Assembly (NCBI RefSeq): GCF_963678975.1
Contig: NC_089277.1
Span: 24,254,672 to 24,318,671 of the forward strand
Direction of reading: 5' to 3'
Source: Dysidea avara
Taxonomy: Eukaryota > Porifera > Demospongiae > Dictyoceratida > Dysideidae
Length of the DNA stretch: 64,000 nucleotides
Below, piece after piece: positions 2,441 through 55,680 of the stretch. Under the pieces are notes generated by a model. The model did no database searches. It was not told where the DNA came from and was given only the letters and a program-made list of their open reading frames with translations. How positions within the stretch are numbered: position 1 is the first letter of the stretch; every line of letters starts with the position of its first letter. The position numbers and the translations under genes are program-made.

Positions 2441-5400
2441 TCAATCTTCACCTATCAGTGGTTCTCGAAAACTAGCATAGTTATACTGAATGTCTGGAAT
2501 TTCCATGGTAAATCTTTCATTATGAATTTGCTTCCTGCTGTGGCACTTTTCAAATATATAATTCCATATAGCTGTTACAGTTTTAGTTAATTTGGCACAA
2601 TAAATGGTGATGACAAAAGCATAAAGATGATAAACTAAAATGATCAGAAAGTGAAGAAATGACAGACCAACCATCACATTTACTGTGATTATGATCATTG
2701 TTTCATTTCCATTAAATATGAGCAATATACACATTATGGCGAAATTGTAAAGTAGTAACAATTCCTGAATATTAATTAACTTGTTCTTGTAAGGCTGAAT
2801 ATATCCTTGAATTATAGCCACAGTTACAATTACAATACAACCTATTGTAAGACTTATAATTTTTCCTAAAACACAAAGTGCCACCAACACATTTCTGATC
2901 AACAGTTGTATTCCAAGCCAGTAATAGTATTGATACTTATACGGACCTTGAATAGCATCTATCAATGGTTTAAAGTAATGAATAATTTTAAACCGCATTA
3001 GTAACTTAGTGAACAACAATATGGCATTGAACATTAGCAACAGCAGAAACAACAAGAAGCATACACTTATCAAAAGTAAAAACTTCCATTCAAATAGTGG
3101 AATAGTTGGATCAAGTAACCAAAGATTCTTGGAACTGTGACTTGGTATAGTGATGATGGTAGAGTACAAAGGCGTATTAGCAATGGTTTGCAGTATACTA
3201 TTGTAAGTAAGCATAAACAAGGTCGCTAGTACTGGTAGTGCTCTGTTATGTGTTAACCGATAAAGTTTGCCAGAGTATCGACTACCAATGATAAATAAAG
3301 TAGCAATAGCTATCAAATAAATTGGATATGTAAGTTGTATCCAGATTTTAGCATACATACTCATTCCATTGTAAAAGCACATTTCAAACGATGGTCCAGC
3401 ATTTGTAGTTATAATATATGAATGCAAAAATGTTTCCATTTGTGAAAGAAAGAACGGACTAATAATCCTAACCATGTTTACATATAGAATAACACCATTG
3501 ACAGCTCCTGAGGTCACTGTTAGGTTGAGAAGAAACAGAATCATGATAAGAAAAAATCCTGTGAACCAGAAATAGATGATATAAAATAAATGGAGGTTAG
3601 AACACTTTCTGCATTTGTTGGACCCAAACACTACACTGTACCCTTCTATACATTGTGAACACAAGAGACCAGTTCTGTGAGGCTGACATTGATCATCTGG
3701 ATGATGTAAATTGATCCTTGTTGTACTTTGTAGGCAATAGTTGGTGGGACAATCAGTGGACACCATGTACTGTTTGGTTGAGTTAATACCAAATATATAA
3801 GTGTTGGAAAGTCTTCTCACTGTTTGACTACTTATCATACACTCATCAATGTATTTTCTAAGATCATTATCACAGTCACAAATTCCATGTTGCAATGTAA
3901 ATCCTAATGGACATGGAAGAAGGTGGACATTGAAGGCATCATAAGAAGTGAACAAGTTTGGTTGAGCTGTTAGGAATAACTCACACACTGGAAGCTCTGA
4001 AACAATAGAAAAATGTACAGCTCTGCTTTTTTCCCAATGGAATATATGTCTCATATTGTCATGTTTATAAATTTTACAAGCTGAATTTGGTAAGTTATTG
4101 TTATACATTTCAACATACATGACTCCAAACTCTTCATTGTTTTGAGGTAGACACAAATCCACAGTCAAATTTTCACCAGGATATACAGGACCTAATTGAT
4201 CGACACTACAATTGTAATGTGATGATGATGGACAGTAACAAACTGTGGTGTGAATACCTACTTGAGATGGAAATAGGCTATTTTCATTTACTAATTTAAT
4301 AATACCATTATTAATAAATAAGGGAGTGACATTTTGAAATGCTGCACCAGGAGCCCATTTACAATGTGATGTTAACTGATGGATGGTATCATGAATAAAT
4401 TCAGTAAATTCACTATATTGTGTCATTGGCTGGTTAAATGATATGTTGATTTGAAAACTTTCACTTGTATTGTTATTTGGTGAATAATACTGGAATAGAC
4501 AGTAAGGATAAGGATGATTGGGTTTAATGCTAACATGTATTATTTGATTGATTACTTTGTTATTGGATATGGTAAGTGTTACTTTGGAACTATTTGAGAG
4601 CACCAAATAACCTTTTCCGCTAATGATAGAAATTACGTTTATGCAAAAGTTATTGTTGAACAAAGTAGAATTTGAGAAATGCATTGTGGAAGTAGACAAA
4701 TGAACTATGTATCCAAAATGATTATCAATAAATCTAGTGATTCCATTGAAATGCATATGTACATATTTCAATGATATTAATTTTCCGTCATCGTACAAAT
4801 TTTTATTTCCTTTTGCAATGAAATAACCATTAGTGTTAATAACAATAGATGACTGATTGGTGTCTGATGTTGTAAAGGAAGGTAACACTTCTAGTAAAGT
4901 TAAAGAGTTGTCATAAAATGCTACATTGTTGAATTGAATATTTAGGAGGTGCGAACATTGTGACACTTCATTAATTTTCAGGAGTGGAATATTTATGCTT
5001 GCGTCTAGATGTGTGTTTGAAAATACTGTTTCACTGAAACAAATATTAAGTATAGGGTGGAGTTCCCTTAGATCCAAAATGCTAAAGAGGTTGTACTGCA
5101 AATCAATAAGACCATATGTCACATGGTTAGAAAGAAATCTGCACTTGTGAAAATTGATGTTAGTATGCGATAGAGAAGTAACTGTTATCATTACTATGCC
5201 ATCATTCCAATTAGAAAAGTCCGAGTTTACAATAATTATAAACACACTGAAATAATCAATTGATAATTCAAGCATCCTTTTATCAGAAATACAGTCGCAA
5301 CACTTTGTAATACAATAATCTCTCAATATAATGTTATTAAATTTAGTAATAACTTCTTTGTCATCTTTTACAGTGTCACTGTCAATATTTGCATAATTCC

Positions 5401-5995
5401 AGCAAATGCCATTGCTGCATATAGAATTATTGTATTTTTCCTGTCTACCCATTATCACAGTAACATTATCTAGGCTATTGTTTCCCATCACATTGAAGGC
5501 TAATATACCATATCCCACTGGGTTGTAAATGTATGAATTTATAATTGCCAAATCAGTGCAAAAATGAAAAAACAAGGTTGCCCAACAATTAAACTTGTAT
5601 TCACATATCTCTGGCACTAAACTACCACATTCCTCAAACTTTAACTGTTTAATCAGCAGAGTAGTGACACTGTAAAAATAAATATGGTGATTAGGTGAAC
5701 ATCTAATAACACTTACAGGTGAGGTATGGTCACTGGTATTTGGTGTACCAATGAGTGAAACATTAGTGACATTTTGAATTATGAAATTGCCTTTTACATG
5801 ATAATAATCTCCCTGATCAAACAACAATGTTGTATCAGACACAAAGTACTCATCAGAGTTGTTAGTGAAGTATTCTAGTGTATGACAAGGTGGTTGTAGA
5901 CATGGGGTATCATCAGGATGAACATGATATTGATCATGAGCAGCAAGTATGATGGTTAGGATGGTTAGTAGTCCAGCAAACAAAACATAAAACAT
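2441..5995 (-). CDS. Secreted beta-helix / multi-pass membrane protein (copy A, intact)
   Basis: Single exon, 1184 residues, starting at an ATG directly before a hydrophobic signal peptide (about residues 1-18). A short Cys-containing segment is followed by about 600 residues of Asn/Ile/Ser-rich irregular repeats with many N-glycosylation sequons, the pattern of a right-handed parallel beta-helix. A cysteine-rich segment follows: CPLGFTLQHGICDCD near 695-710 and an EGF-like block with motif GLLCSQCIEGYS near 770-800. The last 380 residues hold about eight hydrophobic segments (roughly 800-835, 885-900, 915-930, 968-995, 1018-1040, 1048-1064, 1075-1095, 1101-1130) and a cytoplasmic tail ending in a conserved REPLIGED. 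The architecture suggests a cell-surface receptor or adhesion protein, but no function is established. The YYYW...R stretch before a hydrophobic segment loosely recalls EGF/ephrin-receptor-like multi-pass proteins of protists. Related copies lie at 7558, 9931, 23735 and 33144. Confidence 0.85.
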   Translation of the reverse strand: MFYVLFAGLLTILTIILAAHDQYHVHPDDTPCLQPPCHTLEYFTNNSDEYFVSDTTLLFDQGDYYHVKGNFIIQNVTNVSLIGTPNTSDHTSPVSVIRCSPNHHIYFYSVTTLLIKQLKFEECGSLVPEICEYKFNCWATLFFHFCTDLAIINSYIYNPVGYGILAFNVMGNNSLDNVTVIMGRQEKYNNSICSNGICWNYANIDSDTVKDDKEVITKFNNIILRDYCITKCCDCISDKRMLELSIDYFSVFIIIVNSDFSNWNDGIVMITVTSLSHTNINFHKCRFLSNHVTYGLIDLQYNLFSILDLRELHPILNICFSETVFSNTHLDASINIPLLKINEVSQCSHLLNIQFNNVAFYDNSLTLLEVLPSFTTSDTNQSSIVINTNGYFIAKGNKNLYDDGKLISLKYVHMHFNGITRFIDNHFGYIVHLSTSTMHFSNSTLFNNNFCINVISIISGKGYLVLSNSSKVTLTISNNKVINQIIHVSIKPNHPYPYCLFQYYSPNNNTSESFQINISFNQPMTQYSEFTEFIHDTIHQLTSHCKWAPGAAFQNVTPLFINNGIIKLVNENSLFPSQVGIHTTVCYCPSSSHYNCSVDQLGPVYPGENLTVDLCLPQNNEEFGVMYVEMYNNNLPNSACKIYKHDNMRHIFHWEKSRAVHFSIVSELPVCELFLTAQPNLFTSYDAFNVHLLPCPLGFTLQHGICDCDNDLRKYIDECMISSQTVRRLSNTYIFGINSTKQYMVSTDCPTNYCLQSTTRINLHHPDDQCQPHRTGLLCSQCIEGYSVVFGSNKCRKCSNLHLFYIIYFWFTGFFLIMILFLLNLTVTSGAVNGVILYVNMVRIISPFFLSQMETFLHSYIITTNAGPSFEMCFYNGMSMYAKIWIQLTYPIYLIAIATLFIIGSRYSGKLYRLTHNRALPVLATLFMLTYNSILQTIANTPLYSTIITIPSHSSKNLWLLDPTIPLFEWKFLLLISVCFLLFLLLLMFNAILLFTKLLMRFKIIHYFKPLIDAIQGPYKYQYYYWLGIQLLIRNVLVALCVLGKIISLTIGCIVIVTVAIIQGYIQPYKNKLINIQELLLLYNFAIMCILLIFNGNETMIIITVNVMVGLSFLHFLIILVYHLYAFVITIYCAKLTKTVTAIWNYIFEKCHSRKQIHNERFTMEIPDIQYNYASFREPLIGED

Positions 5996-6624
5996 GACTA
6001 CAGTGTATTTCTATACAAAGAAAATTGAAACAAATTAATTTCAGTGGTCTAAAAAACATATTAAGCCTACATAGCTGGTACCGCAGTACTTGGGATTTTG
6101 CTATAATTTTCTGGCAATTTTGTGAAGATATGATGTTTGCTACAGGTACACTTCTTGTTAGCTACGTAGCTATTGTGGTAGCTGTGTACCACTGAAGGTG
6201 TAACTACACACCATGCATACAACTGTATTGCAGCTATACCATGTAACTTTTGACCCATGTTGTTTACAGCTTTTCCAGAGTACTTACACAAACATACAAT
6301 TATACTGTTTGTCATCAATTGCGTATATATCAATGGCATACAATACTTACCTTCTATATTCATTATTCCATGACTATTTTTAACTGACTGTAATGAATGT
6401 GACTTTATATCAGTGTATTATTATATATTAGCAATCCAGGTTATTAATATGCATTACAAGATATCCTGTTGATCTCAATTAGAAGGTGACTTTCATGCAT
6501 GTGGTCAAATGCTAATGAAATTGAAACTTCATAATAACATTAGTTACAATAGTTGTTTATGTTCAACTTTCTTCTTTGGATTTTGACAATAGTCTATTAT
6601 GCTGCAACATTTTCAACAAAATAT
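5996..6624. other. Upstream region of copy A, no other gene seen
   Basis: AT-rich noncoding DNA that should contain the promoter and 5' UTR of the minus-strand gene ending at 5995. A 98-codon minus-strand open frame at 6067-6363 shows no recognisable domain and was not called. Confidence 0.5.
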
Positions 6625-9930: not shown

Positions 9931-11567
9931 TTAATTTTCACCAATAAGTGGTTCTCGAAAATTAGCAAAGTTATACTGAGCCTCTGGAATTTCCATAGTA
10001 AAAGTTTCATTGCAAACTTTACTTTGCTTCCTATTGCAACTTTGTTCTATTATATAATTATGTAATGTTGTTACAAATTTAGTTAATCTGGTACAATGGA
10101 TGGCGACCATGTAAGCAAACACATGATAAACTAAAATGATCAGAAAGTGAAGAAATGACAGACCAACCATCACATTTACTGTGATTATGTTCATTGTTTC
10201 ATTTTCATTGAATATGAGCAATATACACATTATGGCAAAGTTGTATAACAGTAACAATTCCTGAATATTTATTAACTTGTTCTTGTAGGGTTGAATGTAA
10301 CCATGAGCAATAGCCACAGTTATAACTATAATAATGCAGCTTAAGCTGATAATTGAATTGTTTCCAAATACAGAAAACAAGACCATTACATTTCTGATCA
10401 GAAGTTGTATACCAAACCAGTAGTAATATTTGTACTTGAATGGTCCTTGAAAAGCATCTATCAATGGTTTAAAGTGATGAATTAATTTAAATCTCATCAG
10501 TATTTTAGTAAATAACAATACTGCATTGACCATTAGGAGGATCAGAAACAACAGCAAGCATGCACATATTAAAAGCAAGAATTTCCACCCATGTAGTGAA
10601 ATATTTGAGTCAAGTGACCACACATTTATGGATTTGTCACTTGGTATAGTGATGATGGTAGTGTACAAAGGTGCGCTAGCTATGGCTTGTAGTATGCTAG
10701 TGTAAGTAAGCATAAACAAGGTTGCTAGTACTGGTAGTGCTCTGTTATATGCTAACCGATAAAGTTTGGTAGAGTAATGACTACCTAGTGTTAATGAAGT
10801 AGCAATCAATATAAAATAAATTGGGTATGTAAGTTATATCCAAGTTCTAGCATCTCATTGTAAAAGCACATTTCAAAAGATGTTCCAAGATTAACTGTGT
10901 AAAAGTATGGGTTTAGAAATGTCACTAATCTGTCCTTTAAATGGACAACAGGTTTAATGATCCAAACCATGTTAACATACAAAAAATTACCATTGATAGT
11001 TCCAGAGGTGACTGTAAAGTTAAGGAGAAAGAGGAGGACAATCAAAAATAAGCCTGTAAAAGTAAAATAGATGATATAAAGCAAATGAAGATTAGAACAC
11101 TTTCTACATTGGTTGGATGCAAACACAATGCTATACCCCTCTGCACATTGTGAGCAAAGCACACCAACTCTACTTTGCTGACACAGAGGAGAGTTTGAAT
11201 TGTTTAAATTAACCCCGGTTGCTCCTGGTAAACAATAATCATCAGGACACTTTGTAGAAACGATGTACTGTCTAGTTGTCAAGTTGGCTGATATGTACAC
11301 ATTCAGAAGTCTTCTCACTGTTTGATTACTTATCATACAGTCATCAATGTATTCTCTAAGATCAGAATCAGAATCACAAATTCCATGTTGTAATGTAAAT
11401 CCTAATGGACATGGAAGAAGGTGGACAAAAAAGACATCATACGAACTGAACAAATTTGGTGTTGCTGTTAAGAATAGCTCACAAACTTGTTGCTCTGATG
11501 TGATAGCAAAGTTTACACTTTTGAATTCATTATAATGAAATTTATAATAATGCATGCTCTTAAACAC
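9931..11567 (-). pseudogene. 5'-truncated beta-helix/membrane gene (copy C)
   Basis: Two open frames, 10806-11567 (253 codons) and 9931-10809 (292 codons), join across a frameshift near 10806. Together they cover the cysteine-rich segment (CPLGFTLQHGICD, then CSQCAEGYS) and the whole multi-pass C-terminal region with the conserved tail ending REPLIGEN. The beta-helix N-terminal half and signal peptide are missing: homology stops near 11570, where a dispersed repeat begins. Close in sequence to copies A and D. The long open frames suggest fairly recent loss, or use as an exon of something else, but no start context is seen. Confidence 0.85.
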
Positions 11568-11579
11568 ACAAGCAGATTT

Positions 11580-11730
11580 TGAAAAAGTGTCACTTGTTTC
11601 AGTAAATATAGTCCGGCTGTTGAAGGGTTGGACCTTGAAGAAATTGGTATAGAAGAAAATTTGGTATCAACAGAAGCGAAATTTTTTGTAGAATGGCATA
11701 TCCAAAGTCCACCAAAAACCACTTTGGGGA
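11580..11730. repeat. Dispersed repeat bordering the truncation of copy C
   Basis: The block around 11610-11700 (containing CCTTGAAGAAATTGGTATAG) is repeated inverted at about 23625-23710. In both places it adjoins the 5' truncation point of a membrane-protein pseudogene. Possibly the end of an unrecognised element. Confidence 0.55.
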
Positions 11731-12650: not shown

Positions 12651-12658
12651 ATGCAGAA
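12651..12658. repeat. Left target-site duplication ATGCAGAA
   Basis: Eight bases, ATGCAGAA, directly before the transposon end CAGCGTTGAAACC. The identical octamer follows the other end at 20041-20048. A perfect match of this length at both exact termini fixes the element boundaries. Confidence 0.92.
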
Positions 12659-12673
12659 CAGCGTTGAAACCGG

Positions 12674-12706
12674 GTCACTACTGCTGACCCGGATTTGACC
12701 CGGATT
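12674..12706. repeat. Subterminal GACCCGG motifs, left end
   Basis: About three copies of ACCCGG/CCGGGT directly inside the terminus. The right end has about seven (19956-20030). Short subterminal repeats of this sort are usual transposase-binding sites. That role here is inference. Confidence 0.65.
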
Positions 12707-12745
12707 TATTTTATTTTATTTATTATTAATGGACCTTATCCGCAT

Positions 12746-12774
12746 TGACGTCACGATATAAAAATGGCGGCGTT
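12746..12774 (+). promoter_or_regulatory. Promoter-like block in left TIR: CRE palindrome, TATA, YY1-like
   Basis: TGACGTCA (12746-12753) is a perfect CREB/ATF-type palindrome, four bases before TATAAAAA (12757-12764), which runs into AAAATGGCGGC, a YY1-like site. The first good start codon is about 60 bp downstream at 12824. The same block lies inverted at 19902-19933 before the minus-strand gene. Motifs are seen directly; promoter activity is inferred. Confidence 0.6.
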
Positions 12775-12823
12775 AGTGTGGGGAGTTTGTACAGGCAACC
12801 ATTGAGAGGGTTTGTATTTCGCC

Positions 12824-12857
12824 ATGAACAGTGTGAAGAATTCAAGAGAAAGTTCAG
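12824..12857 (+). CDS. Shared first coding exon, left copy
   Basis: The ATG at 12824 opens an 11-codon exon (MNSVKNSRESS) followed by a good donor (CAG then GTAAGG) after one base of the next codon, that is phase 1. The identical exon lies in the right TIR at 19822-19855 on the minus strand. All downstream cassette exons and both main exons accept phase 1, so this exon can serve as the N-terminus of either protein. Confidence 0.6.
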
Positions 12858-13219
12858 GTAAGGTATTTTATTTATTGTCCGATGTAGAAAGGGCCATTTT
12901 CGTACTAAATAAGAGTTCTAAGGATGGTTTTTTAAAGATGGTTCTCGTGAGGCTCCTCCGAAGGGTTGTAAACGCTAGGCAGACCAACTTATTTCCTTAC
13001 ACAATCTGCTTAAAGGTTGTTGGGTAGTGCGAAAATGCGTAGTAGTGCGATAGCATGCCGGTCCAAGTCGTGTTTCTTGTTGACCCGTCGGCAGTGCGGC
13101 GGCGAGGTAACGTGTTTTGTTCAGGCTCTTATACATATACATGTATTCATGATAACAGTTTGTAGCTCTTAATAGAGATGGTCGGTGATTTAGCAAAATT
13201 TTATGTTGAATGTTGACAG

Positions 13220-13920
13220 ATTCTACCTTGCTGTCCACCTGGAGTCAAATTGTTAGTAGTCACAGTTCAGTAGATCATGCCAGTGATGCCAGTGAGACCA
13301 CTGAGAGTAGAGACCACTGAGAGTAGTGCCATGAGAAGGCTTGGTAAGAAAATGATCAAGATTGTACATGTGAACTGACTTCAAACATTTTATGTAGAAG
13401 CTGAAGGTGATGTTTGTGGCTTTGATCATGATGTAGCAGGTGGTGACAGAAGATATTATGGTTAGAGGCTTTCATCATATCAGCTAGCTAAATAATAATT
13501 TGTTTATTTGTATGTAGATGCTGAAGATAATGTCTGGAGTCTTGATGATAGCAGTGTTGCAGTAGGTGACAGAATTCTCGGTAGCTAAGATATATATGTA
13601 TTTTGCTTACTTATACGATAATTTACAGATGCTGAAAATAACATTCCTGGCTTTGTAAACCAAGATCACAGTGTGATGGAGGATGAAACAATGCTATCCA
13701 ATGGTTAGAGATTATATATCACAGCTACTTGCTGATTTGTTGGCATATCCATTTTATAGATGCTGAAGGTTATGCCCAAAGTCTTGTGTCACACAGGAAA
13801 GGATCACAAATTGCTTGGTGAGATACTGCATCATTTGTTTATATAATACAGCCATTTATGTAGATGTAGAAGGTAATGTCCTAGCAAAACCTAAGGGTGT
13901 GATGGAACTTGAGTATGATA
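13220..13920 (+). CDS. Array of phase 1-1 exon cassettes in left TIR (a-f)
   Basis: Predicted exons: a 13220-13343, b 13398-13460 (63 nt), c 13518-13580 (63), d 13629-13703 (75), e 13760-13817, f 13864-13920 (57). Each follows an AG acceptor and, except f, ends at a GT donor. Cassettes b, c, d and f are multiples of three and read, with one base carried over, as short acidic modules beginning (D/E)AE or DVE, so they look like serial duplicates. Cassette a holds a 16-bp tandem duplication (unit GAGACCACTGAGAGTA) that breaks its frame; without it the length would be 108. Cassette e lacks 2 bp present in the right copy. Skipping any intact cassette keeps frame. Splicing is inferred from the sequence. 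Confidence 0.5.
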
Positions 13921-14297
13921 GTTTCAGGCTCTTACTTTTTGTTGACACATTTTTGTAACTAATATAAAGGGTTTGATGTTGGCAGATTCTGTCTGCCAGG
14001 TGGAGACAGATTCTGTCTCTACCTGGAGCTTGTAGTGGTAGTGGCGATCGCTTTGCACATTCTGTAGCTGCCCAACAGACTGCAAATCATAGCCATATAC
14101 CAAGCTTGAGCCATACATGTTGACTTGCATTTTTATAGATACTGAAGCTGATATTTTGTCATAGCCAAACACCAATATTGATGTCAACATTACAATCAGC
14201 TCTGGGCCTACAAAATGTGTAGAAGGAAAGACTACAAATTCTTCAGGTAACTAATTGTCGTGCATTGTGATATCTATTTGTAATCATTTCATTCCAG

Positions 14298-15838
14298 ACT
14301 CACAATCATTGAACAGTACTAGTTTTCACAGAGCTGTTGGAAGCTCAAGCAAACCTTGGAATGGGTACAATTGTTGTGTGCCTGGGTGTTACAATTCTTC
14401 TGGCGAGAATAAGTTTAGGGATGAGTCCTCAAAAGTTTCCTTTCACAACCTTCCTGATGTCAAGTCAAAGAAGGGAAAAACATGGATTGGGTTGATTCAT
14501 CGTGATCTTAATGAGGATTTTGTTGTCACGAAAAGTACCAAAATTTGTTCTGACCATTTTCTTTCTACTGATTTTCTTTTAAATTGTGAGAGACGGCGGC
14601 TAAAACCTGATGCAGTTCCATCCTGTTTTCCTTGGAGAAAATGCTTTAAACGCAGATCACGAACATCTCAAAAAGCATCACAAGCTTTATTGGAGGATGA
14701 AAAACCTAATGAGAGGATGGCTAGTGCAACGAATAGCAGAAAGAAAATGAAAGCAGAAATTGTTTCTGTCAGTATGGATTCTACTGATATACAACCTAGT
14801 GCAGAAACCGCTGAGGAACCTGACCAACAGGATGTGATTGTTAACCTTCAAACTCAGGTTATTAGTCTTCAAAATCAACTGGCAGAAACAGAAAACAGGC
14901 TTAAAAAGAGTTTATTTAGGCTTGAGAACATCAGGGATGATGCAAAGTTGATGAAGTTTTATACAGGATTTGTAGACTACGAAACTTTAATGGCTTTTTA
15001 TGAGATGTTGGAATCAGATGCATTAGTGATGAGACAGTGGAGTGGGAGGCGCTGTGGATCTAATTATGATGATGTAAAAACTGGACCAAAGTACAAGCTT
15101 CCATTGAAAGAGCAATTCTTTTTAACCCTTGTTAGGCTCCGAGCTGGACTACCTGAGCTAGATGTTGCTAATAGATTTGATGTTTCACAAGCAACAGTTT
15201 CAAGAATCACTAATACGTGGATTAACTTGATGTTCCACACCCTTAAGTCCATTGAGAAATTTCCACCATGGCATGTAGTAAAAAAGTATATGCCTGATTC
15301 ATTCAAAAAAGAGTACCCAAATACAAGAATTATTATTGACACAACAGAATTTGCAGTTGAAAGGCCATCTTCCCTGTTATCTCAAGCTTGTACATTTTCT
15401 GCCTACAAAAACAAGAATACGATAAAAGTTTTAATAGGTGTAACTCCCAGTGGAGCAATTTCATTTGTTTTGGAAGCTTACGAAGGATCGATATCTGACC
15501 GAAAATTAGTAGAAGTCAGTGGACTATTGGATAAACTAGAGCCAGGAGATGAGGTCATGGCTGACAAAGGTTTTACTATTCATGACTTGTTGATTCCTCG
15601 TGGTGTACGTTTGAACATTCCGCCATTTCTTCAAGGAAAAGTGCAAATGACACCCAATGATGTATTTCTTACCAAGAAAATTGCTCATCTAAGGGTGCAT
15701 GTGGAAAGAAGCATTGGACGAGTCAAAGAGTTTAAAATTTTGCAGGACACTCTTCCTGCAACTATGTGGGATTCTGTTAGTCATGTTGTGTACGTTTGCT
15801 GCATGCTTAGTAACTTTGGACCTCCATTAGTATGTTAG
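14298..15838 (+). CDS. THAP-domain DDE transposase (main exon)
   Basis: The exon starts after the acceptor ATTCCAG at 14297; the phase-1 entry matches the upstream cassettes. An N-terminal THAP zinc finger is present: CCVPGC, then ICSDHF, closed by AVPSCFPW, giving the C2CH set. A coiled coil follows (VNLQTQVISLQNQLAETE), then a helix-turn-helix (KEQFFLTLVRLRAG...DVSQATVSR) and a DDE_Tnp_4-type catalytic domain. Likely catalytic residues are Asp at 15338 (IDTTEF), Asp at 15562 (ADKGF) and Glu at 15714 (HVERSIGR). Length and order fit transposases of the PIF/Harbinger-ISL2EU sort. It would bind the element ends and cut and join DNA in the nucleus. The frame is intact and ends 95 bp before the convergent gene. 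The N-terminus comes from upstream exons, since no ATG lies at the exon start. Confidence 0.9.
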
Positions 15839-15933
15839 CAGTATAATTGTAATTACATTATTGTTTGGTAGAATTATCAATGGACATACATAAATACAAA
15901 ATAGTAATTGTACGCTAAATTTTTACATGTGAT

Positions 15934-18487
15934 TCATAAAGAGTTTGTGGAATCATAATGATTTATGCCATTATAAATAATGAGAAGAGGTGGTGGGTTA
16001 TACTTATTCCATTGATCAAGCAAATCTTCCAAGTCCATAGGAATGAAAATCCCACCTCTCATTTTAGGTACAGGTGGAGGGTAGCATAAAAACCTCCGTG
16101 CAGAGGTGCATTTATCACCTGATCTTGTGATTACCACTATTTCCCTTCCTATTCCAATGGCAAGCAAGCGTATTTCCAAATCACCACCCCATTCAGTAGC
16201 CTGCAAAACTCTTAATTTTTTTGTCTCCCATTGCTGTTGTGAGAGTCCTTCCTCAGTTCTTACATCTGGATACTTCTGCATGGTAATTAGGGTTAACATC
16301 CTTAATTGCTGTCCAACACATTTGTCTCCACGTGAAGACGGTTCAATATAACCAGCCTGGTGAGCAATGGAATAATACAAACAATTTCCATCACCACACA
16401 CTGTGTGTGGTGTACAGTGCAGTTGCTGTAGTATATTGATTGGTGGTTGTGGCCTGCTCACTGTTGAAACACACAAAAATTCAACTTCATCATATGATTC
16501 TACAGGGGCTCTCTTCACTGAAAGGTTGTCTGTACTCAGATCTGTACCTATTGCAGAATGTTCATAAGCCTGTGATATGATGAAATATGGCACAATGGAT
16601 GGCAAAAATTTATCAAAATAAAATACTCTGGCCTTAGATATTGCTTCTTCAATGAATACTTGGTCGTAGAAAATCCTTTCTACGTGAATGTCTCCTCCTG
16701 GAGCCCACAAAACAAAATCACCCCAGGACAATCAAGTCACGAACAACTGGGTCTGTACCTGATAAAAGTATTGATGGCTTCTCTTAAGTTGCAATTCTCC
16801 GTTACTGTTTGTATGCAGACAAAATGTTTTCTCCATAGCAGCTGCAGTTATGGGCTTTTTTGCACATACAAAAGGACATTTTACCTCTAAACATCCCATG
16901 TCTTCACCATCTATTATAACAAGGGAATCAGGAGTGGCAGCTAGCCAAGGTATGGCAACATTAATAAACAAGCCGCATTTGTGGACTGTTACGTCTATGC
17001 CCTGTTTCTTTTGATAATGAATATAACTATCAATTGCTCTACTTTCATTCTTTTGTCCATAGTTGATGGCTGGAGAATTGATGGATTTTTGAGCCAACTT
17101 ATTAGTGATAAATGCCTTAGCGTCAGTGTCTTTCTTCCTATGACAAACAGTTTTCATTATTGACGCTGAGATTCGTAGCATCCTCTCATCATGCCAAACA
17201 TTTGATATAGACTGATTGCGTGTGCTGGCTTCAATATCAATAGCTCTTGAAGGACCAATACAAATATGATCTTCGTACAGATTTCTCACAAGATACGACG
17301 GTGGAGGTACTTCAGAATTATCAACTTCATAAGGGACTGCTGTATTAGTAGAGGAACTATAACAATGATCGTGATTGATAATATCTACCAAATTACACAA
17401 TTCTTGCTGAAATTTTGATTTCATTGCTTTAGCTTTTGAAATCCGTTCTTCTCTAGCCCTTTGAAGTCTATCTTCTGATGGTGCTGGTTCATCATCAAGC
17501 AATTGCAAAAAACAAGATGTCCCATATCTACTGAGCATTGTTTGTGCTTCAATGGCTTTTTTTGTCTCTGCTACATTAGTGGCTGAAGCAACGGCATGGA
17601 CAGCAGCCTCTTTCTTCTTTTGGTCTATAGCTAACAGCCTACTTCTTAAATTAGGCCTCCTGTCAGGTGGAACAGCTCTTCTGGAAGTTGGTCGACAGTC
17701 CCATTGGTTAACAGTGCAAACTTTGATTCTTTTCTCTACACCATACACCTTCTTTGTTAGTGTAACTAAGTTGGTAGGTCTTGCATCTACTTTCTTGTCT
17801 CTTGGCTGGTTCCAGAGTTGACGTTTTTCTGTACAACTTTTTTCATCTTCTTCATTCAGCTTTAAATGGAAATAGTTCTGTAGACAGTAGAGAGTAGCTG
17901 TGACATGATTACAGCAACCAGATAGCCCAGCTGGGCATGCACAGAAAGCCTTAGCGACATCACTTGTTAGTTCTGATAGGACTATATACACTTTATAAAG
18001 TTTGTCTTTCTTCATAGACGGTAAGACATCGGCCCCAATGCAAATGTAGTTCAATTGGTTGGACATAGGATGGTATCTGATGTTTTGAACATGCCCATCC
18101 TGAAAGAAACGGTATGCCTTGTCCAATGGTCGAGTGAAACCAATAGATTCCTCTGAGCCAAGATTACTTATCAACTTCTGTTTGCCAACATCCTTAACTG
18201 AACAGCTATCTCTCCTCTCCATAGCACTTTCAACATAATCTGCATTTCTTAGAAAACATTTTCGATCGACTAGAAACTTAAAAATGGTGCCAAATGTAAT
18301 TTTAGGACATTTGTGTATATCCTTGGTCCATTGATTGTCTTTAGCTTTTGGTACTGACTGTAATAGGTTTTCATCAAGAAAATTTCTATGCTTTGCAGAT
18401 ACGGATTGTAACTTATTCTTAACGTTTATGCCAACATCTGGATCAATCAGATATAGGTCCCATCCATATTTAATGAAATCACAAACT
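15934..18487 (-). pseudogene. SWIM-YqaJ nuclease-OTU protease protein, main exon, with one in-frame TGA
   Basis: One frame runs from the acceptor at 18488 to the stop at 15934, broken only by TGA at 16732-16734. A conserved N-terminal part (WDLYLIDPDVGINVKNK) leads to a SWIM zinc finger (CACPAGLSGCCNH, near 17930). A YqaJ/lambda-exonuclease-like domain follows with TPDS near 16927, LEVKCP near 16880 and YQVQTQL near 16750. After the stop the same frame goes on with WGDFVLW...HVERIFYD, the normal continuation of YqaJ proteins, then an OTU cysteine protease with DGNCLYYS (Cys nucleophile) and a later NHYD (His). The nuclease could process transposon DNA; the protease could remove ubiquitin-like modifiers. 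Both roles are inference. The TGA probably replaces CGA by CpG decay. The region past the stop could still be made by readthrough. Confidence 0.85.
16732..16734 (-). other. In-frame TGA splitting the YqaJ-OTU frame
   Basis: The codons on either side are ACT TGA TTG. The YqaJ homology continues in the same frame without loss. A single C-to-T change at a CpG (CGA to TGA) is the simplest explanation. It follows the catalytic YqaJ motifs and precedes the OTU domain. Confidence 0.8.
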
Positions 18488-18534
18488 CTGAAATTTTAAC
18501 TATTGATTTAAAATACATGTATTGATGAACATAC

Positions 18535-18814
18535 CTTTCAATCAGTTCTGGCTTTTTCCCATTAGTTGGTGCCCCACGGCAAACAAGCCATCTTTTCAAC
18601 TGCATAACATTCAATTCAGATGGATGTTTACCATCCAGCGAAGAGCCAGGAACATCACACTCTGCCAGCAATAGAATACCAGTATCCAAAATATCATCAG
18701 GTTCTCCTTCAACATTATTACAGCCCTCGATATGGTTCTCAGTTCCCAATAATTGGCTATCATACTCAAGTTCCATCACACCCTTAGGTTTTGCTAGGAC
18801 ATTACCTTCTACAT
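18535..18814 (-). CDS. SAP-domain exon of the YqaJ-OTU gene
   Basis: The exon runs from an acceptor (TATGTAG) at 18815 to a donor (AAAG then GTATGT) at 18535. A 47-bp intron separates it from the main exon. Entering in phase 1 it starts DVEGNVLAKPKG, the same cassette f as in the left TIR, then leaves the inverted repeat at 18757. It continues through an acidic stretch to a SAP motif (SELNVMQLKRWLVCRGAP...KPELIER), a helix-loop-helix DNA-binding fold. The joined reading across the intron (ELIER/VCDFIKYGWD) is open and in frame. It thus links the TIR-encoded N-terminus to the SWIM-YqaJ-OTU part. Confidence 0.8.
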
Positions 18815-19821
18815 CTACATAAATGGCTGTATTATATAAACAAATGATGCAGTATCTCACCAAGCAATTTGTGATCCTTTCCTGTGTGACACATAAGACT
18901 TTGGGCATAACCTTCAGCATCTATAAAATGGATATGCCAACAAATCAGCAAGTAGCTGTGATATATAATCTCTAACCATTGGATAGCATTGTTTCATCCT
19001 CCATCACACTGTGATCTTGGTTTACAAAGCCAGGAATGTTATTTTCAGCATCTGTAAATTATCGTATAAGTAAGCAAAATACATATATATCTTAGCTACC
19101 GAGAATTCTGTCACCTACTGCAACACTGCTATCATCAAGACTCCAGACATTATCTTCAGCATCTACATACAAATAAACAAATTATTATTTAGCTAGCTGA
19201 TATGATGAAAGCCTCTAACCATAAATCTTCCGTCACCACCTGCTACATCATGATCAAAGCCACAAACATCACCTTCAGCTTCTACATAAAATGTTTGAAG
19301 TCAGTTCACATGTACAATCTTGATCATTTTCTTACCAAGCCTTCTCATGGCACTACTCTCAGTGGTCTCTACTCTCAGTGGTCTCACTGGCATCACTGGC
19401 ATGATCTACTGAACTGTGACTACTAACAATTTGACTCCAGGTGGACAGCAAGGTAGAATCTGTCAACATTCAACATAAAATTTTGCTAAATCACCGACCA
19501 TCTCTATTAAGAGCTACAAACTGTTATCATGAATACATGTATATGTATAAGAGCCTGAACAAAACACGTTACCTCGCCGCCGCACTGCCGACGGGTCAAC
19601 AAGAAACACGACTTGGGCCGGCATGCTATCGCACTACTACGCATTTTCGCACTACCCAACAACCTTTAAGCAGATTGTGTAAGGAAATAAGTTGGTCTGC
19701 CTAGCGTTTACAACCCTTCGGAGGAGCCTCACGAGAACCATCTTTAAAAAACCATCCTTAGAACTCTTATTTAGTACGAAAATGGCCCTTTCTACATCGG
19801 ACAATAAATAAAATACCTTAC

Positions 19822-19855
19822 CTGAACTTTCTCTTGAATTCTTCACACTGTTCAT
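19822..19855 (-). CDS. Shared first coding exon, right copy
   Basis: Identical to 12824-12857 on the opposite strand: ATG at 19855, 11 codons, phase-1 donor GTAAGG. Here it would start the SAP-SWIM-YqaJ-OTU protein. Confidence 0.6.
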
Positions 19856-19901
19856 GGCGAAATACAAACCCTCTCAATGGTTGCCTGTACAAACTCCCCA
19901 C

Positions 19902-19933
19902 ACTAACGCCGCCATTTTTATATCGTGACGTCA
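19902..19933 (-). promoter_or_regulatory. Promoter-like block in right TIR
   Basis: Mirror copy of the left block: TGACGTCA at 19926-19933, the TATAAAAATGG complement at 19912-19922, start codon about 60 bp on. It would drive the minus-strand gene with the same inputs as the transposase. Confidence 0.6.
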
Positions 19934-19955
19934 ATGCGGATAAGGTCCATTTGTA

Positions 19956-20030
19956 AACCGGGTCAGACCTGGATGACCCGGAGAAAATGTGACCCGGTTG
20001 ACCCGGATGACCCGGATGACCCGACCCGGT
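19956..20030. repeat. Subterminal GACCCGG motifs, right end
   Basis: About seven copies of GACCCGG or close variants at 6-12-bp spacing, against about three at the left end. Likely transposase-binding array, by analogy with other cut-and-paste elements. Confidence 0.7.
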
Positions 20031-20040
20031 TTCAACGCTG

Positions 20041-20048
20041 ATGCAGAA
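20041..20048. repeat. Right target-site duplication ATGCAGAA
   Basis: Perfect match to 12651-12658, directly after the right terminus GGTTTCAACGCTG. Confidence 0.92.
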
Positions 20049-20170: not shown

Positions 20171-20668
20171 TTATAATTTATCTAAAAATACTTGTAGAGA
20201 TTGGGATTCTATTGCGTCAGTTGGTAAATTGTTCCAATCACGGATAGATTTGGGGTAATAGCTGAATTTATAATGATCTGTTCTAGCAAACGGAATCTCA
20301 AAATGGAAGGGGTAGTGGTGGCGGGTGAGATATGTGGTGTTTGTGAAATAATTTGGGACTGTTAAGACTGATGAGGAGTAAACAATGTTGTAGAAGACTT
20401 TTAATCTAGTCACATATCGTCGGTGTTGAAGTGATGGCCATTGTAGATCTGCTAACATAGATGTAACACTACTGTTATATCGGTAGTCTGACTTGACCCA
20501 ACGAGCAGCACATCGTTGTACCATTTCTATACTTTGTATCTCCTTCTGCAAGTAGGGGTCCCATACTGCCGATCCATACTCCAACAGTGGTCTCACTATC
20601 CTGGTGTAGGCTAAACATTTAGTTTCTGCAGAACATCTATAAAGGTTACGTTTAACAAATATTCCCAT
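20171..20668 (-). pseudogene. LINE reverse transcriptase C-terminal fragment (1)
   Basis: An open 165-codon frame has the layout typical of the region just after the RT palm in CR1/L2/Jockey-like LINEs: RPLLEYGSAVWDPYLQKEI, MVQRCAARWVKSDYR, then a WPSLQHRR stretch and a C-terminal DWNNLP. The 5' part of the element is absent, as expected for a 5'-truncated insertion. It differs clearly from the LINE at 25218-26012, so it is another family or an old copy. Confidence 0.8.
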
Positions 20669-20726
20669 GTTTGTAGGATTTGCGCCTGGTTTAACATATG
20701 AAGAAAGCTATAGCATGTCTAAATGG

Positions 20727-26012: not shown

Positions 26013-28399
26013 TATGTACTAAACACGCGTCGACACTAATTGGCGCTACATTGTTAACATAAATTCTAGCCAATGAAATTACAATTACAACTTTTTCACT
26101 GCTGTCAGTGAAATTGGTATGGTATTACTGCAAGAATTTGATTCTATAATTAGTGGAAAAGGTTATTTGGTGCTTTCAGGTAGTTCCAAAGTAACTATAT
26201 CCAATAATAAAGTAGTTAATCAAATAATACACGTTAGCAGTAGAACCAATTATCCTTATCCTTACTGTCTATTCCAGTATTATTCACCAATTAACAACAC
26301 AAGCAAAAGTTTTCAAATTAACATAATATTTAACAAGCCAATGACTAAATCTACATCTCCTGGATTCATTCATAATGCTATCCATCTTGCAGTTAACATC
26401 ACATTGTAAATGGGCTCCTGGTGCAGCATTTCAGAGCATCCCTCCCTTAACTATAAACAATGAAATTATTAATTTGATGTATGACGATGGTATATTTCCA
26501 TCTCAGATACAGGTGGGGATTCACACCACAATCTGTTACTGTCCACCATCATCACATTACAATTGTAGTGTTGATCAATTAGGTCCTGTATATCCTGGTG
26601 AAAATTTGACAGTGGATTTGTGTCTGCCTTACAATGATGAGGAAATTGGCATCTTGTATGTGGAAACATATAACAAAAATCTACCAAAATCAGCTTGTAA
26701 AATTTATGAGCAAGACAGTATGAGCCATATATTCTATTGGAACCAGAGTAGAGGTATCCAATTTCCTATAGCTTCAGAACAAGCAGCAGTTTGTGAGTTA
26801 TTTCTCACAGCAACACCAAACTTGTTCACTTCTTATGATGTCTTTTATGTCCACCTTCTTCCATGTCCATTAGGATTTACATTACAACATGGAATTTGTG
26901 ACTGTGATCCTGATCTTAGAAAATACATTGATGAGTGTCTGATAAGTAGTCAAACAGTGAGAAGACTTTCTAACACTTATATATTGGGTATTAACTCAAC
27001 CAAACAGTACAAGGTGTCCACTGATTGTCCCACCTACTATTGCCTACAAGATACAACAAGGATTAATTTACACCATCCAGATGATCAATGTCAACCACAC
27101 AAAACTGGTTTGTTATGCTCACAATGTGCATAAGGGTACAGTGTAGTGTTTGGGTCCAGAAATTGCAGGAAGTGTTCTAACCTCCATTTATTTTATATCA
27201 TCTATTTTGACGTGCTCACAGGATTTTTTCTTATCGTGATACTGTTTCTTCTCAACTTACATGTAACAGTGACCTCAGGGACTATCAATGGTCTTATTCT
27301 ATATGTTAACATGGTTTGGATTGTCAGTCCTTTTTCCTTTCGCAGTTAGAAACATTTTTGCATTCGTATATTAAAATTACTAATATTGGACCATCTTTTG
27401 AAATGTGCTTTTACAACGGAATGAATATGTATGCTAAAATATGGATACAACTAACATATCCAATTTATTTAATACTGATTGCTGCTACATTTATTGTAGG
27501 TAGTCGTTATTCTACCAAACTTTATCGGTTAACGTATAACAGAGCACTACCAGTACTAGCAACCTTGTTTATGCTTACTTGCAATACTATACTACAAGCC
27601 ATATCTAGTGCACCTTTGTACACTACCATCATCACTATACCAAGTGACAGTTCCAGGAATCTTTGGTTGCTTGATCCAACTATTCCACTATTTGGATGGA
27701 AATTTTCACTTTTGGTTAGTGTATGCTTGTTGTTGTTTCTGCTGTTGCTAATGTTCAATGTCATATTGTTGTTTACTAAACCACTGATGAGATTTAAAGT
27801 TGTCCATCACTTTAAACCATTATTAGATGCATTTCAAGGACCATTTAAGTATCAATACTATTACTGGTTTGGAACACAACTGTTGGTCAGAAATGTGATT
27901 GTGCTACTTGCTATTTTAGGAAAAAATACGTATAAGCCTTACAGTAAGTTACATCATAGCTATGACTGTTGCTATAATCCAAGGGTATATTCAGCCTTAC
28001 AAGAACAAGATAATTAATATTCAGGAATTGTTGCTGCTGTACAATGTTGCCACAATGTATGTATTGCTCATATTCAATGGAAATGAAACACTCAACATAA
28101 TCACAGTAAATGTGGTGGTTGGTCTGTCATTTCTTCACTTTCTGGTCATTTTAGCTTATCATCTGTATGCTTTTGTGATCACCATTTATTGTACCAGATT
28201 AATTACAAGTATAACAACTGTATGGAATTATATATTTGAAAATGCTACAGCAGGAGGCAAAGAGAATTTCACAATGAAAGACTTACCATGGAAATTCCAG
28301 AGGCTCAGTATAACTTTGCTAATTTTCAAGAACCACTGATAGGTGAAGATCAACAAACTTTTCCTCAAGACAGCATACATTATTATGCATGCACCTAAG

Positions 28400-36100: not shown

Positions 36101-36698
36101 ACAAATACATGCCATGACATGTAATGTAACTGAAGTAGGACTTTCCTATGTTGTTTACTGCCATCACAGCGTAAAAAGTAAACCATGAAGTATTTTTGTA
36201 AATGTGTAGTAAATATAAGGCTACCGTGTTGCATTCTTTGATTAGAAGTACTGCACGTTCATAATTGTTAGCATCATGGTTAGGAAACTGACCCTGGCAG
36301 TGTTTAATGATCATATTTTCTAATGTTAAGTTAGTGATATTAACAAATATGATACCTATAAAAGTAACATCACACTCACACTGGATTACTGCTGCTGGTG
36401 TTGTACCATTAGTCACACTATTTCCAATCAGTGATATGTTGTGAACATTTTGTATTATGAGATCAGTTTTAAGGTGATGTAGTCCTGCTAGGAAAAGTAG
36501 TTGAGTGTTAGAAGTGAAGTATTTGGTGGTATTGAGCAGGTAGTGTTGTAGGTTATGACAATGATCACATGTAGTGTTAGGATAGTAGCGATCATCTTGT
36601 GTCACGGTGTAGACATTATCACTTGTAATACTTTGGAGTGATACCACCAACAGCACTGTGTAACCAATGGGTGACATTCTAGATACTTTGAAGTACAT
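33144..36698 (-). CDS. Secreted beta-helix / multi-pass membrane protein (copy E, intact paralog)
   Basis: Single exon, 1184 residues from the ATG at 36698; a second Met (MSPIGY) eight residues on sits nearer the hydrophobic signal peptide and may be the real start. Same plan as copy A: a Cys pair and SNTQLLFLAGLHHL near the N-terminus, beta-helix-like repeats with many sequons to about residue 600, then CPLGFAKIYGKCRCDP near 691, an EGF-like GILCGQCQQGLS...CQRC near 775-803, about eight hydrophobic segments from 806 onward, and a tail with EVSFNYHEHREPLVALDS. Sequence is clearly diverged from copies A, C and D, so it is the oldest branch of the cluster. Localisation would be the plasma membrane with the beta-helix outside. 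Ligand and signalling are unknown. Confidence 0.85.
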   Translation of the reverse strand: MYFKVSRMSPIGYTVLLVVSLQSITSDNVYTVTQDDRYYPNTTCDHCHNLQHYLLNTTKYFTSNTQLLFLAGLHHLKTDLIIQNVHNISLIGNSVTNGTTPAAVIQCECDVTFIGIIFVNITNLTLENMIIKHCQGQFPNHDANNYERAVLLIKECNTVALYLLHIYKNTSWFTFYAVMAVNNIGKSYFSYITCHGMYLYYNSTDKKLAANFTLDHYFFNIANSCDLHLANPLKVLVLQKLKVILKISNITIQHVLCTDVDFFLYIDIFHIIGCTTVFVTDCDFTDNYFVGTIFFFKSSNDALIQFANCKFLSNIISFRLISMITTSEGNHLSTQIISCLFQNNTRSDAIIVTTSTETIISNSVFHRNVNTSVLQVNPNINLEAGTLILQNVDFSGNNIRKQMHSNLIQVSNTKVVLMGNVKFYKNAVSRSIIYLHYYSIIILNVGKIEFSRNIALCIIDFSLYLQIVYIIENTTLLFYNNHICAIFTTSFVPFPLCIFQYFSNIPYDKEYLQDRNYSITFNENYYMEKCYRNVPLIDCQWFANTLFSNMLPADVNMNYIKFINKSGTYNMVPQTSNQKTLCFCKDSQHSDCGVNELGSLFPGQILHMFISDNTKKFSNSEVKITLESTVNQSYISACTVDITDSTKYVQLKKNCTKVNFTIAFPTNSLCAIFLKIASDSNDYVNILYINQLRCPLGFAKIYGKCRCDPNLVPFGVIVCNINDHTILRPANSWISAAAVTNNKSITQTYYFSLHCASYCQTFPSYINLSSPNSQCQFNRSGILCGQCQQGLSTIFSSFQCQRCSNVYMFLIIPIAAVAGLVLVLLLFLLNLTVTDGTINSFILYVNITAINASLLFQTSTPAYTLTSLANLDLGIQTCFYNGMDDYAKIWLQLLLPFYLMLIATLLIITSHYSTTIQRLTARRALPVLATLFLLSYTKILHTVSSVLFSYSTIIRLPSKHSTLVWSVDANVPLLGVKFVVLFLACLIMFLVQVPFTIILLFSRPLRRFHYINKFKPLLDAYQGPYKDSYYYWNGLHLMVRVVFLGISTLDENTKVLVGIVIVSFTCALTGIAHPFKRKFQNYHEIAVLLNLQILYIFAQQHELNMTAINTVIAMAAAHFTLIVMYHIITYMCGGVIRNKIQQGVNAIVKQRRNQSAVQSFQLNNVPEVSFNYHEHREPLVALDS

Positions 36699-55676: not shown

Positions 55677-55680
55677 TATG

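What the first reader, a model, noticed from the sequence alone, without database searches (positions are those of the whole stretch)
12659..20040. Two-gene DNA transposon joining a THAP-DDE transposase with a SAP-SWIM-YqaJ-OTU protein
Seen: perfect 8-bp duplication, 1.26-1.28-kb inverted repeats, two convergent genes. One encodes THAP, HTH and a DDE triad; the other encodes SAP, SWIM, YqaJ exonuclease-type motifs and an OTU protease with DGNC and a later His. Known: THAP transposase plus YqaJ nuclease fits my memory of the ISL2EU group. A cysteine protease of the OTU deubiquitinase family joined to the nuclease would give a mobile element both a DNA-end-processing and a ubiquitin-editing activity. 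I do not know of a description of that combination.
Basis: partly seen in the sequence, partly recalled or inferred. Interest (0 to 1): 0.88.

Follow-up and report, generated by a model that had tools for sequence, protein, structure and literature searches.

The report
Sponge transposon with deubiquitinase-like nuclease
A cut-and-paste jumping gene in a sponge genome carries, opposite its transposase gene, a gene whose product joins a DNA-chewing enzyme to a likely ubiquitin-removing enzyme, and its long inverted ends carry the first coding exons of both genes, so the two proteins are predicted to begin with the same stretch.

Summary
The element is real, but its boundaries and target duplication were misread. 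It is a 7,218-bp ISL2EU-type transposon (12731-19948) in the sponge Dysidea avara: all 7 full-length copies found end in GGACCTTATCC flanked by AT. The 8-bp duplication belongs to a common repeat into which this copy inserted. THAP, HTH, DDE, SAP, YqaJ and OTU pass Pfam cut-offs; SWIM is a conserved motif only. YqaJ and OTU form one protein: two copies of a related family carry an uninterrupted SAP-SWIM-YqaJ-OTU frame of about 1,100 aa. OTU-partnered transposases form one clade. The window copy has stop codons in both genes. OTU in transposons (Ginger1, Helitrons) and YqaJ in ISL2EU were known; my paper searches showed neither their fusion nor the shared leader. Deubiquitinase activity and its role are inferred.

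The parts
12731..19948 (.). Whole ISL2EU-type element, 7,218 bp
   Evidence: Ends GGACCTTATCC and AT duplications identical in 7 of 7 full-length copies found
12729..12730 (+). Target-site duplication AT (left), in A|AT|T
   Evidence: 13 of 13 fetched copies of the host repeat run uninterrupted through the site
19949..19950 (+). Target-site duplication AT (right)
12731..13921 (+). Left long terminal inverted repeat (promoter-like region and shared leader exons)
   Evidence: 99.58% identical to right arm over 1,193 columns
18757..19948 (-). Right long terminal inverted repeat
12746..12772 (+). TGACGTCA, TATAAA and ATGGCGGCG motifs near the end of the left arm (the right arm is identical there); promoter-like, not tested
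12824..12856 (+). Leader exon 1 (MNSVKNSRESS), left copy; right copy 19823-19855 on the minus strand
   Evidence: tblastn of annotated D. avara proteins P0073 and P0025
13216..13921 (+). Stretch with the further leader exons (acidic DAE-type mini-exons), left copy; right copy 18757-19463 on the minus strand
14138..14246 (+). Private leader exon of the transposase gene (approximate ends); in-frame stop codon in this copy
14255..15838 (+). Transposase main frame: THAP, coiled-coil-like stretch (by eye), HTH_Tnp_4, DDE_Tnp_4
18447..18920 (-). Partner gene: frame with a leader exon and the SAP exon
   Evidence: SAP 6.9e-8
16732..18495 (-). Partner gene: SWIM motif and YqaJ exonuclease domain; ends at an in-frame TGA (16732-16734)
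   Evidence: YqaJ 5.2e-11; lambda-exonuclease fold
15934..16731 (-). Partner gene: end of YqaJ, linker and OTU domain (active-site Cys codon about 16381-16383, by reckoning)
   Evidence: OTU 4.5e-7; OTU fold; Cys in 33 of 33 aligned rows
12659..12730 (+). Left half of the host repeat, not part of the element
19949..20040 (+). Right half of the host repeat, not part of the element
   Evidence: right end matched at 97-100% at 40 scored places, window included; 13 of 13 fetched copies continuous through the insertion point
12651..12658 (+). 8-bp duplication ATGCAGAA of the host repeat; second copy 20041-20048

Best explanation
This is a recently mobile, now broken copy of an ISL2EU-type cut-and-paste DNA transposon family in the sponge Dysidea avara. 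SHOWN: two convergent genes, AT target duplications, ends starting with GG, long inverted repeats that contain the leader exons of both annotated proteins, and (in relatives) a partner protein that joins SAP, SWIM motif, YqaJ nuclease and OTU protease in one chain with both catalytic sets conserved. INFERRED: (1) the DDE transposase binds the ends through its THAP/HTH parts, cuts, and inserts at (A)AT(T); (2) the partner, brought to DNA by SAP/SWIM, uses its lambda-exonuclease-like YqaJ domain to process DNA ends around excision or integration; (3) its OTU domain removes ubiquitin from the transposase, from itself or from repair factors at those ends, keeping the complex from degradation or biasing repair; (4) because each inverted repeat carries a promoter and the same leader exons, one pair of ends makes both proteins with a common acidic N-terminus, which ties their expression and may help them co-assemble. 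My odds: steps 1 and 2 in outline about 0.8 and 0.5, step 3 about 0.45, co-expression in step 4 about 0.7, co-assembly about 0.25.
For: Domains. Seven full copies with identical ends and AT duplications. Five other copies are 98.3-99.3% identical to the window in the stretches compared. Uninterrupted SAP-SWIM-YqaJ-OTU frames of 1,104 and 1,099 aa in L028 and L029, a related family, 99.47% identical to each other over 5,273 columns on two chromosomes. Catalytic residues in a 33-row alignment that I chose among the OTU-bearing proteins: OTU Asp and Cys 33 of 33, late His 29 of 30 ungapped; YqaJ D, E, K 33 of 33. Folds: LHK-Exo/lambda exonuclease and OTU proteases by Foldseek on a model with pLDDT mostly 80-97 in both domains. 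OTU-partnered transposases form one clade (SH-aLRT 99, quick tree); distances of the two genes correlate across 11 pairs (r = 0.90, 0 of 9,999 permutations as high). Shared leader: P0073 and P0025 identical over 135 residues, P0013/P0079 89 of 116, P0059/P0129 67 of 87; the same exons lie in both arms of the window and, for P0013/P0079, in the 728-bp arms of L053.
Against: No activity was measured; whether this OTU cleaves ubiquitin or something else is unknown. Of 6 other full-length copies of the family, the partner gene could be read in 3; these and the window (4 of 4) each have a break somewhere in it. 17 of 20 fetched YqaJ loci in this genome have no OTU, so the OTU is dispensable for ISL2EU-like elements in general. 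11 of the 51 rows of the OTU clade lack it in the recorded frame. L028 has only a 51-bp terminal repeat and L029 gave none, so long repeats and a shared leader are not general. Leader sharing was not found for 3 of 7 named partner proteins tested against 11 named transposases. The shared leader rests on annotators' gene models; I saw no transcripts.
Confidence: 0.8

Rival explanations
1. One reading: a single element 12659-20040 with 8-bp duplications (a P/hAT-like target signature) and 1.26-1.28-kb inverted repeats.
For: A perfect 8-bp duplication and an 18-bp outer inverted repeat are present.
Against: 7 of 7 full copies end at GGACCTTATCC with AT duplications and different outer flanks; the outer right sequence exists elsewhere (40 scored places, window included, of 1,506 candidates), and 13 of 13 fetched copies run uninterrupted through the insertion point.
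Confidence: 0.01
2. The OTU domain is fused and conserved but is not a ubiquitin protease in vivo: it cleaves another ubiquitin-like modifier, matures the element's own proteins, or acts only as a binding module.
For: No substrate is known; matches among solved structures include OTU enzymes solved with ISG15 as well as ubiquitin; position 704 of the GDGNC motif is N in 17 and S in 15 of 33 rows.
Against: Asp and Cys invariant in 33 of 33 rows and His in 29 of 30 ungapped argue for catalysis; fold matches include OTUD3 and DUBA.
Confidence: 0.3
3. The shared N-terminal leader is a side effect: inverted repeats lengthened by gene conversion or unequal repair swallowed the promoter and first exons, and the leader has no job as a protein tag.
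For: Leaders are acidic and unrelated in sequence between families (by eye; pI); L028, of a related family, has a 51-bp repeat; the arms are 99.58% identical over coding and non-coding parts alike.
Against: The property is present in three families of named protein pairs and demonstrated in the DNA of two, and the leader is acidic (pI 4.0-4.2) each time.
Confidence: 0.6
4. Chance juxtaposition or assembly artefact: OTU happens to lie downstream of YqaJ only in this copy.
For: An in-frame TGA separates the two here.
Against: 32 of 72 proteins (window protein included) have a complete OTU downstream of YqaJ; 25 places in the genome have this OTU in an open frame of 600 aa or more, 22 of them with a YqaJ-tail match listed for the same frame (my count).
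Confidence: 0.01

Closest known systems
ISL2EU group of the PHIS (PIF/Harbinger-ISL2EU-Spy) superfamily (PMC4482050; passages seen)
   Same: THAP + HTH + DDE transposase; second gene with YqaJ exonuclease domain; AT target duplication, partly in A|AT|T; ends start with GG; animal host.
   Different: Partner also carries SAP, SWIM motif and OTU (the paper's text has no 'OTU' or 'SWIM'); inverted repeats 1,193 bp (the paper gives 6-259 bp); 7.2 kb against an average of about 4.84 kb; leader exons in the repeats; in a sponge, where the paper reports the superfamily absent.
Ginger1 DNA transposons (PMC2836005; passages seen)
   Same: Cut-and-paste element with a C-terminal OTU cysteine-protease domain on its protein; alternative C-terminal modules there (OTU, Ulp1, PHD) resemble the OTU or PHD ends of YqaJ proteins seen here.
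   Different: OTU is on a Gypsy-integrase-like transposase itself, not on a separate YqaJ nuclease; different transposase family.
Helitrons/Helentrons with OTU or VTD deubiquitinase domains (PMC9741609; passages seen)
   Same: Transposon-borne deubiquitinase-type domains; VTD members were shown to cleave ubiquitin chains, while the paper says transposon OTU domains had not been tested.
   Different: Rolling-circle RepHel elements; no DDE transposase.
OTU-less ISL2EU-like elements of the same genome (L012-L027, L031)
   Same: Convergent DDE transposase-like and YqaJ frames (20 of 20 fetched loci, the three OTU-bearing ones included).
   Different: No OTU in 17 of 20; of two examined by Pfam, one (L022) ends in a PHD finger and one (L013) does not; transposases outside the OTU-partnered clade.

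Membership tests
ISL2EU | 2-bp AT target-site duplication | tested here: met
   7 of 7 full copies
ISL2EU | Target context A|AT|T | tested here: inconclusive
   Full A|AT|T in 4 of 7; left A in 5 of 7, right T in 5 of 7
ISL2EU | Termini usually begin GG | tested here: met
   7 of 7
ISL2EU | One gene with THAP, HTH and DDE | tested here: met
ISL2EU | Second gene with YqaJ exonuclease domain | tested here: met
   fold match
ISL2EU | Inverted repeats of 6-259 bp (reported range, not a definition) | tested here: not met
   1,193 bp; a relative, L028, has 51 bp
ISL2EU | Transposase falls in the ISL2EU clade of reference transposases | not tested
   No named reference ISL2EU transposases were at hand to align
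OTU cysteine protease | Pfam OTU above cut-off with catalytic Asp/Cys/His | tested here: met
   30.9 bits against cut-off 23.3; residues
OTU cysteine protease | Ubiquitin cleavage | not testable with these tools
   Needs biochemistry
SWIM domain | Profile match | tested here: not met
   No Pfam SWIM match at E<=1; CxC and CxH residues conserved in all ungapped rows
P/hAT-type element with 8-bp duplication | 8-bp target duplication directly flanking the element | tested here: not met

The most novel reading that the evidence does not exclude
A clade of ISL2EU-type transposons evolved a fused nuclease-deubiquitinase that guards its transposition complex from ubiquitin-dependent repair or destruction. 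In at least two families the inverted repeats also became coding, so transposase and partner are born from duplicate promoters with the same N-terminal tag and co-assemble through it: the ends serve as promoter, leader exons and cleavage site at once.
Probability: 0.2. Interest if true: 0.8.

Novelty: new variant of a known kind. Interest (0 to 1): 0.62.

Why it matters
Several unrelated transposons carry ubiquitin- or SUMO-type proteases (Ginger1, Helitrons, Mutator), and authors have guessed that these protect transposition proteins or steer repair. Here the protease is fused to a DNA-end-processing type of nuclease, which ties the guess to DNA ends, and copies with uninterrupted fusion frames exist in a sequenced sponge, so the idea is directly testable by removing the OTU. 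The leader exons inside the inverted repeats show a way in which one pair of ends can serve two convergent genes and give both proteins a common N-terminus. The finding also places ISL2EU-type elements in a sponge; the 2015 survey whose passages I saw reported the superfamily absent from sponges.

Tried and rejected
Relatives in GTDB genome contigs and in viral contigs: none confirmed. Exact search of the outer 17-mer in viral contigs gave 3 loci, each matching only one terminus of about 17-20 bases plus a weak 22-base match in one. Assignment of the 8-bp duplication to the element: rejected. Chance YqaJ-OTU juxtaposition: rejected. Precise ends of L028 and of the OTU-less families could not be fixed from single copies. 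For L053, an AT duplication inside a palindromic target is possible but not established. L054 showed a terminal repeat cut by the end of the stretch and no shared leader. L049 and L052 came out in the opposite orientation, so the stretch taken missed most of the partner gene. The first table took the first, not the best, OTU stretch; redone. In one search the script looked for both termini of the host repeat and printed '0 of 0', because the left terminus was not found in any of the 13 fetched stretches; the continuity through the insertion point was read by eye from the printed sequences.

Caveats on counts: in the transposase tree the label 'OTU partner' is by shared locus for 5 of 13 rows (window, L028-L030, and P0079 through L053) and by equal contig length or chromosome for 8; for P0109 the partner ORF itself (P0026) lacks the OTU and the label rests on its place in the OTU clade, and for P0114/P0123 only the chromosome matches. 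L021 and L023, with split transposase frames, were left out of that tree. Seven of 72 proteins were dropped from the YqaJ tree for a short YqaJ match. Both trees are quick trees with SH-aLRT only and some long branches flagged. The YqaJ loci fetched were picked from the best Pfam scores, which favours OTU-less families. The first protein search used a query part that includes the OTU; the second did not. In one search, P0059/P0129 were paired by shared leader, not by contig.
Full report
CHECK OF THE OBSERVATION. Two convergent genes lie between long inverted repeats. Pfam finds THAP 3.6e-14, HTH_Tnp_4 1.6e-17 and DDE_Tnp_4 2.2e-44 in the plus-strand frame 14255-15838, SAP 6.9e-8 in the minus-strand frame 18447-18920, YqaJ 5.2e-11 in 16732-18495 and OTU 4.5e-7 in 15934-16731. 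SWIM is not recognised by Pfam at E<=1, though its CxC and CxH residues are kept in every ungapped row of a 33-row alignment (27 or 28 rows ungapped). YqaJ and OTU lie in the same frame, parted here by a single TGA.

BOUNDARIES. The arms align from AATGGACCTTATCC inwards and are 99.58% identical over 1,193 columns inside the element; they differ at five columns. The sequences outside share an 18-bp terminus and CCGGGTC-type repeats. A DNA search of the host genome with the left arm (601 bases from 12728) gave 53 matches (40 of 129 candidates scored): seven copies with both arms, the window's among them, one single arm at C3:27273050, twelve short paired-end derivatives of about 320-410 bp, and other partial matches (grouping by me). 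At all seven full copies the element ends exactly at GGACCTTATCC and is flanked by AT on both sides; the full A|AT|T context is present in 4 of 7. This is the target signature described for ISL2EU (PMC4482050, passages). The element is therefore 12731-19948, 7,218 bp.

THE 8-BP DUPLICATION belongs to something else. Joining the two outer halves gives a 162-base sequence. Its right 92-96 bases match at 97-100% at the 40 places scored (the window's own among them) of 1,506 candidates in the genome. Thirteen fetched copies (13 of 13) run without interruption through the insertion point and end at the same CAACGCTG (read by eye). In those 13 the part further left differs from the window, and the left terminus was not found within the fetched 241 bases of any of them, so the window's host repeat is a short or rearranged member; I did not recover an exact twin or verify 8-bp duplications at the other copies.

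HOST. The transposase is 99% identical to a named D. avara protein. D. avara is a demosponge.

THE FUSION. A search with the YqaJ-end-to-OTU part gave 23 proteins, 17 with a precomputed OTU domain. A search with a part that excludes the OTU gave 66, of which 29 carry it. Of the 72 proteins examined together (the window protein and 71 homologs), 32 have a complete OTU after YqaJ, 8 have one cut by the frame's end, 9 have an incomplete or absent YqaJ, 17 have no OTU and a tail under 100 aa, and 6 have a longer tail without OTU. Of those six, P0024 has a PHD finger above Pfam's cut-off, and P0065 and P0068 have zinc-finger or PHD matches below it. In a YqaJ-domain tree (65 rows) all 40 OTU-bearing rows fall in a 51-row clade (SH-aLRT 93) with 11 rows lacking it, scattered; the 14 rows outside all lack it. 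In the host genome the OTU query gives 158 matching stretches (144 of 244 candidates scored; pieces counted apart; the table is cut short); 25 of those listed reach at least residue 250 of 265 in an open frame of 600 aa or more with no stop in the match, and for 22 of these the table also shows a YqaJ-tail match in the same frame (my count). L028 and L029 are one uninterrupted SAP-YqaJ-OTU frame of 1,104 and 1,099 aa by Pfam, with the SWIM motif present, 99.47% identical over 5,273 columns on two chromosomes, each beside a convergent transposase frame about 55% identical to the window's. In L030 YqaJ and OTU are in different frames.

CATALYTIC RESIDUES AND FOLD. In 33 rows chosen among the OTU-bearing proteins, OTU Asp702 and Cys705 are kept in 33 of 33 and His846 in 29 of 30 ungapped; YqaJ D523, E537 and K539 in 33 of 33; that these are the catalytic positions is by motif and recalled knowledge of the families. 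The AlphaFold2 model has pLDDT mostly 80-97 in both domains but mean 74, pTM 0.38 and a low-confidence linker 643-684, so their relative placement is unknown. Foldseek matches LHK-Exo and lambda exonuclease first, and viral and cellular OTU proteases including OTUD3 and DUBA. By sequence alone the OTU part matches nairovirus OTU structures.

CO-INHERITANCE. Of 20 YqaJ loci fetched from the genome, 20 have a transposase-like frame in convergent orientation; 3 of 20 carry the OTU. Transposases labelled as OTU-partnered form one clade in a 29-row quick tree (SH-aLRT 99; labels and omitted rows explained under Tried and rejected). Across 11 transposase-partner pairs the distance matrices correlate with r = 0.90, with 0 of 9,999 permutations as high.

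CODING INVERTED REPEATS. The annotated D. avara transposase P0073 and partner P0025 have the same first 135 residues and then diverge into the THAP and SAP parts. Mapped on the window, the shared residues fall into small exons present in both arms, starting with MNSVKNSRESS at 12824 and at 19855; the arm ends inside the exon that follows them in the partner. P0013/P0079 share 89 of 116 N-terminal residues and P0059/P0129 67 of 87, with sequences that look unrelated to the first pair. In all, 4 of 7 named partner proteins share a leader with one of 11 named transposases, and 3 do not. For P0013/P0079 the locus L053 shows 728-bp inverted repeats, 97.9% identical, with matches to residues 12-79 of both proteins in both arms. 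Leaders are acidic in all three pairs tested (pI 4.0-4.2). L028, with a 51-bp terminal repeat, shows that long repeats are not universal. These are annotators' models; no transcripts were seen here.

STATE OF THIS COPY. Both genes are interrupted: the partner by the TGA, the transposase by a stop in its private leader exon, and the left arm differs from the right by a 2-bp length difference in a leader exon. Of four copies of this family whose partner gene was read (window, L048, L050, L051), all have a break somewhere; YqaJ and OTU are continuous through the junction in two, L048 and L051, and the copy on C13 has the whole OTU part in an open frame of 492 aa. The five other copies compared are 98.3-99.3% identical to the window, so amplification was probably recent.

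KNOWN AND NEW. ISL2EU elements encode a THAP-HTH-DDE transposase and a YqaJ protein (PMC4482050 passages; PMC9179366 one passage). Ginger1 transposases carry OTU or Ulp1 domains and its authors discuss a role in repair (PMC2836005 passages). Some Helitrons carry OTU and VTD deubiquitinase domains (PMC9741609 passages). Searches for YqaJ with OTU/SWIM/transposition (20 listed of 78), YqaJ with OTU, transposase and inverted repeats (14 of 14 listed), ISL2EU with OTU (none), YqaJ with THAP (8 of 8 listed), inverted repeats with identical N-terminus (none) and a looser form of it (20 listed of 28) showed, in the listings, no description of the fusion or of the shared leader. Of five papers naming both ISL2EU and sponges I saw passages; none of these passages describes ISL2EU in sponges, and PMC4482050 reports the superfamily absent there. 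PMC10027918 (passages) treats THAP genes without YqaJ, ISL2EU or OTU. The library is open-access only and Repbase/Dfam were not available, so the element may be catalogued there.

VERDICT. An ISL2EU-type element of a new variant: a lineage with a nuclease fused to a probable deubiquitinase, and in some families coding inverted repeats. The anatomy is well supported; the biochemical roles are inference.

Noticed in passing
12659-12730 and 19949-20040: Two halves of a very common CCGGGTC-rich repeat with 18-bp inverted termini (CAGCG...) and an 8-bp duplication; right end matched at 97-100% at 40 scored of 1,506 candidate places. The 8-bp duplication and CAG-type terminus suggest a hAT-like non-autonomous element; recalled, not tested.
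   Followed up: partly
G000 short matches; L044-L046: Twelve short derivatives of about 320-410 bp keep the element's outer ends (78-89% in the end matches) and look like non-autonomous (MITE-like) relatives moved by this or a related transposase; three were fetched.
   Followed up: partly
L012-L027, L031: Other ISL2EU-like families in the same genome without OTU (17 of 20 loci fetched); several have TATAGAG-like ends, one (L022) a C-terminal PHD finger.
   Followed up: partly
2441-6010, 9931-11666, 26345-27133, 33144-36704: Large membrane-protein-like frames; stretches in the first three regions are 77-85% alike in DNA. The first has only a weak DUF7630 match and the last no Pfam match.
   Followed up: partly
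46204-47133: Frame with two SH3 domains and one SH2 domain, like an NCK/GRB2-type adaptor (recalled).
   Followed up: partly
60190-61164: Reverse-transcriptase frame (RVT_1 2e-13) of a likely non-LTR retrotransposon; 20171-20707 looks similar by eye but has no Pfam match.
   Followed up: partly
54212-54874 and 55044-55677: Near-identical local duplication (99.6-99.8%).
   Followed up: no
L028 and L029, linker of the partner protein: Long run of KQSVG/EKQSV-type repeats between YqaJ and OTU, differing in length between two otherwise 99.5% identical copies.
   Followed up: no
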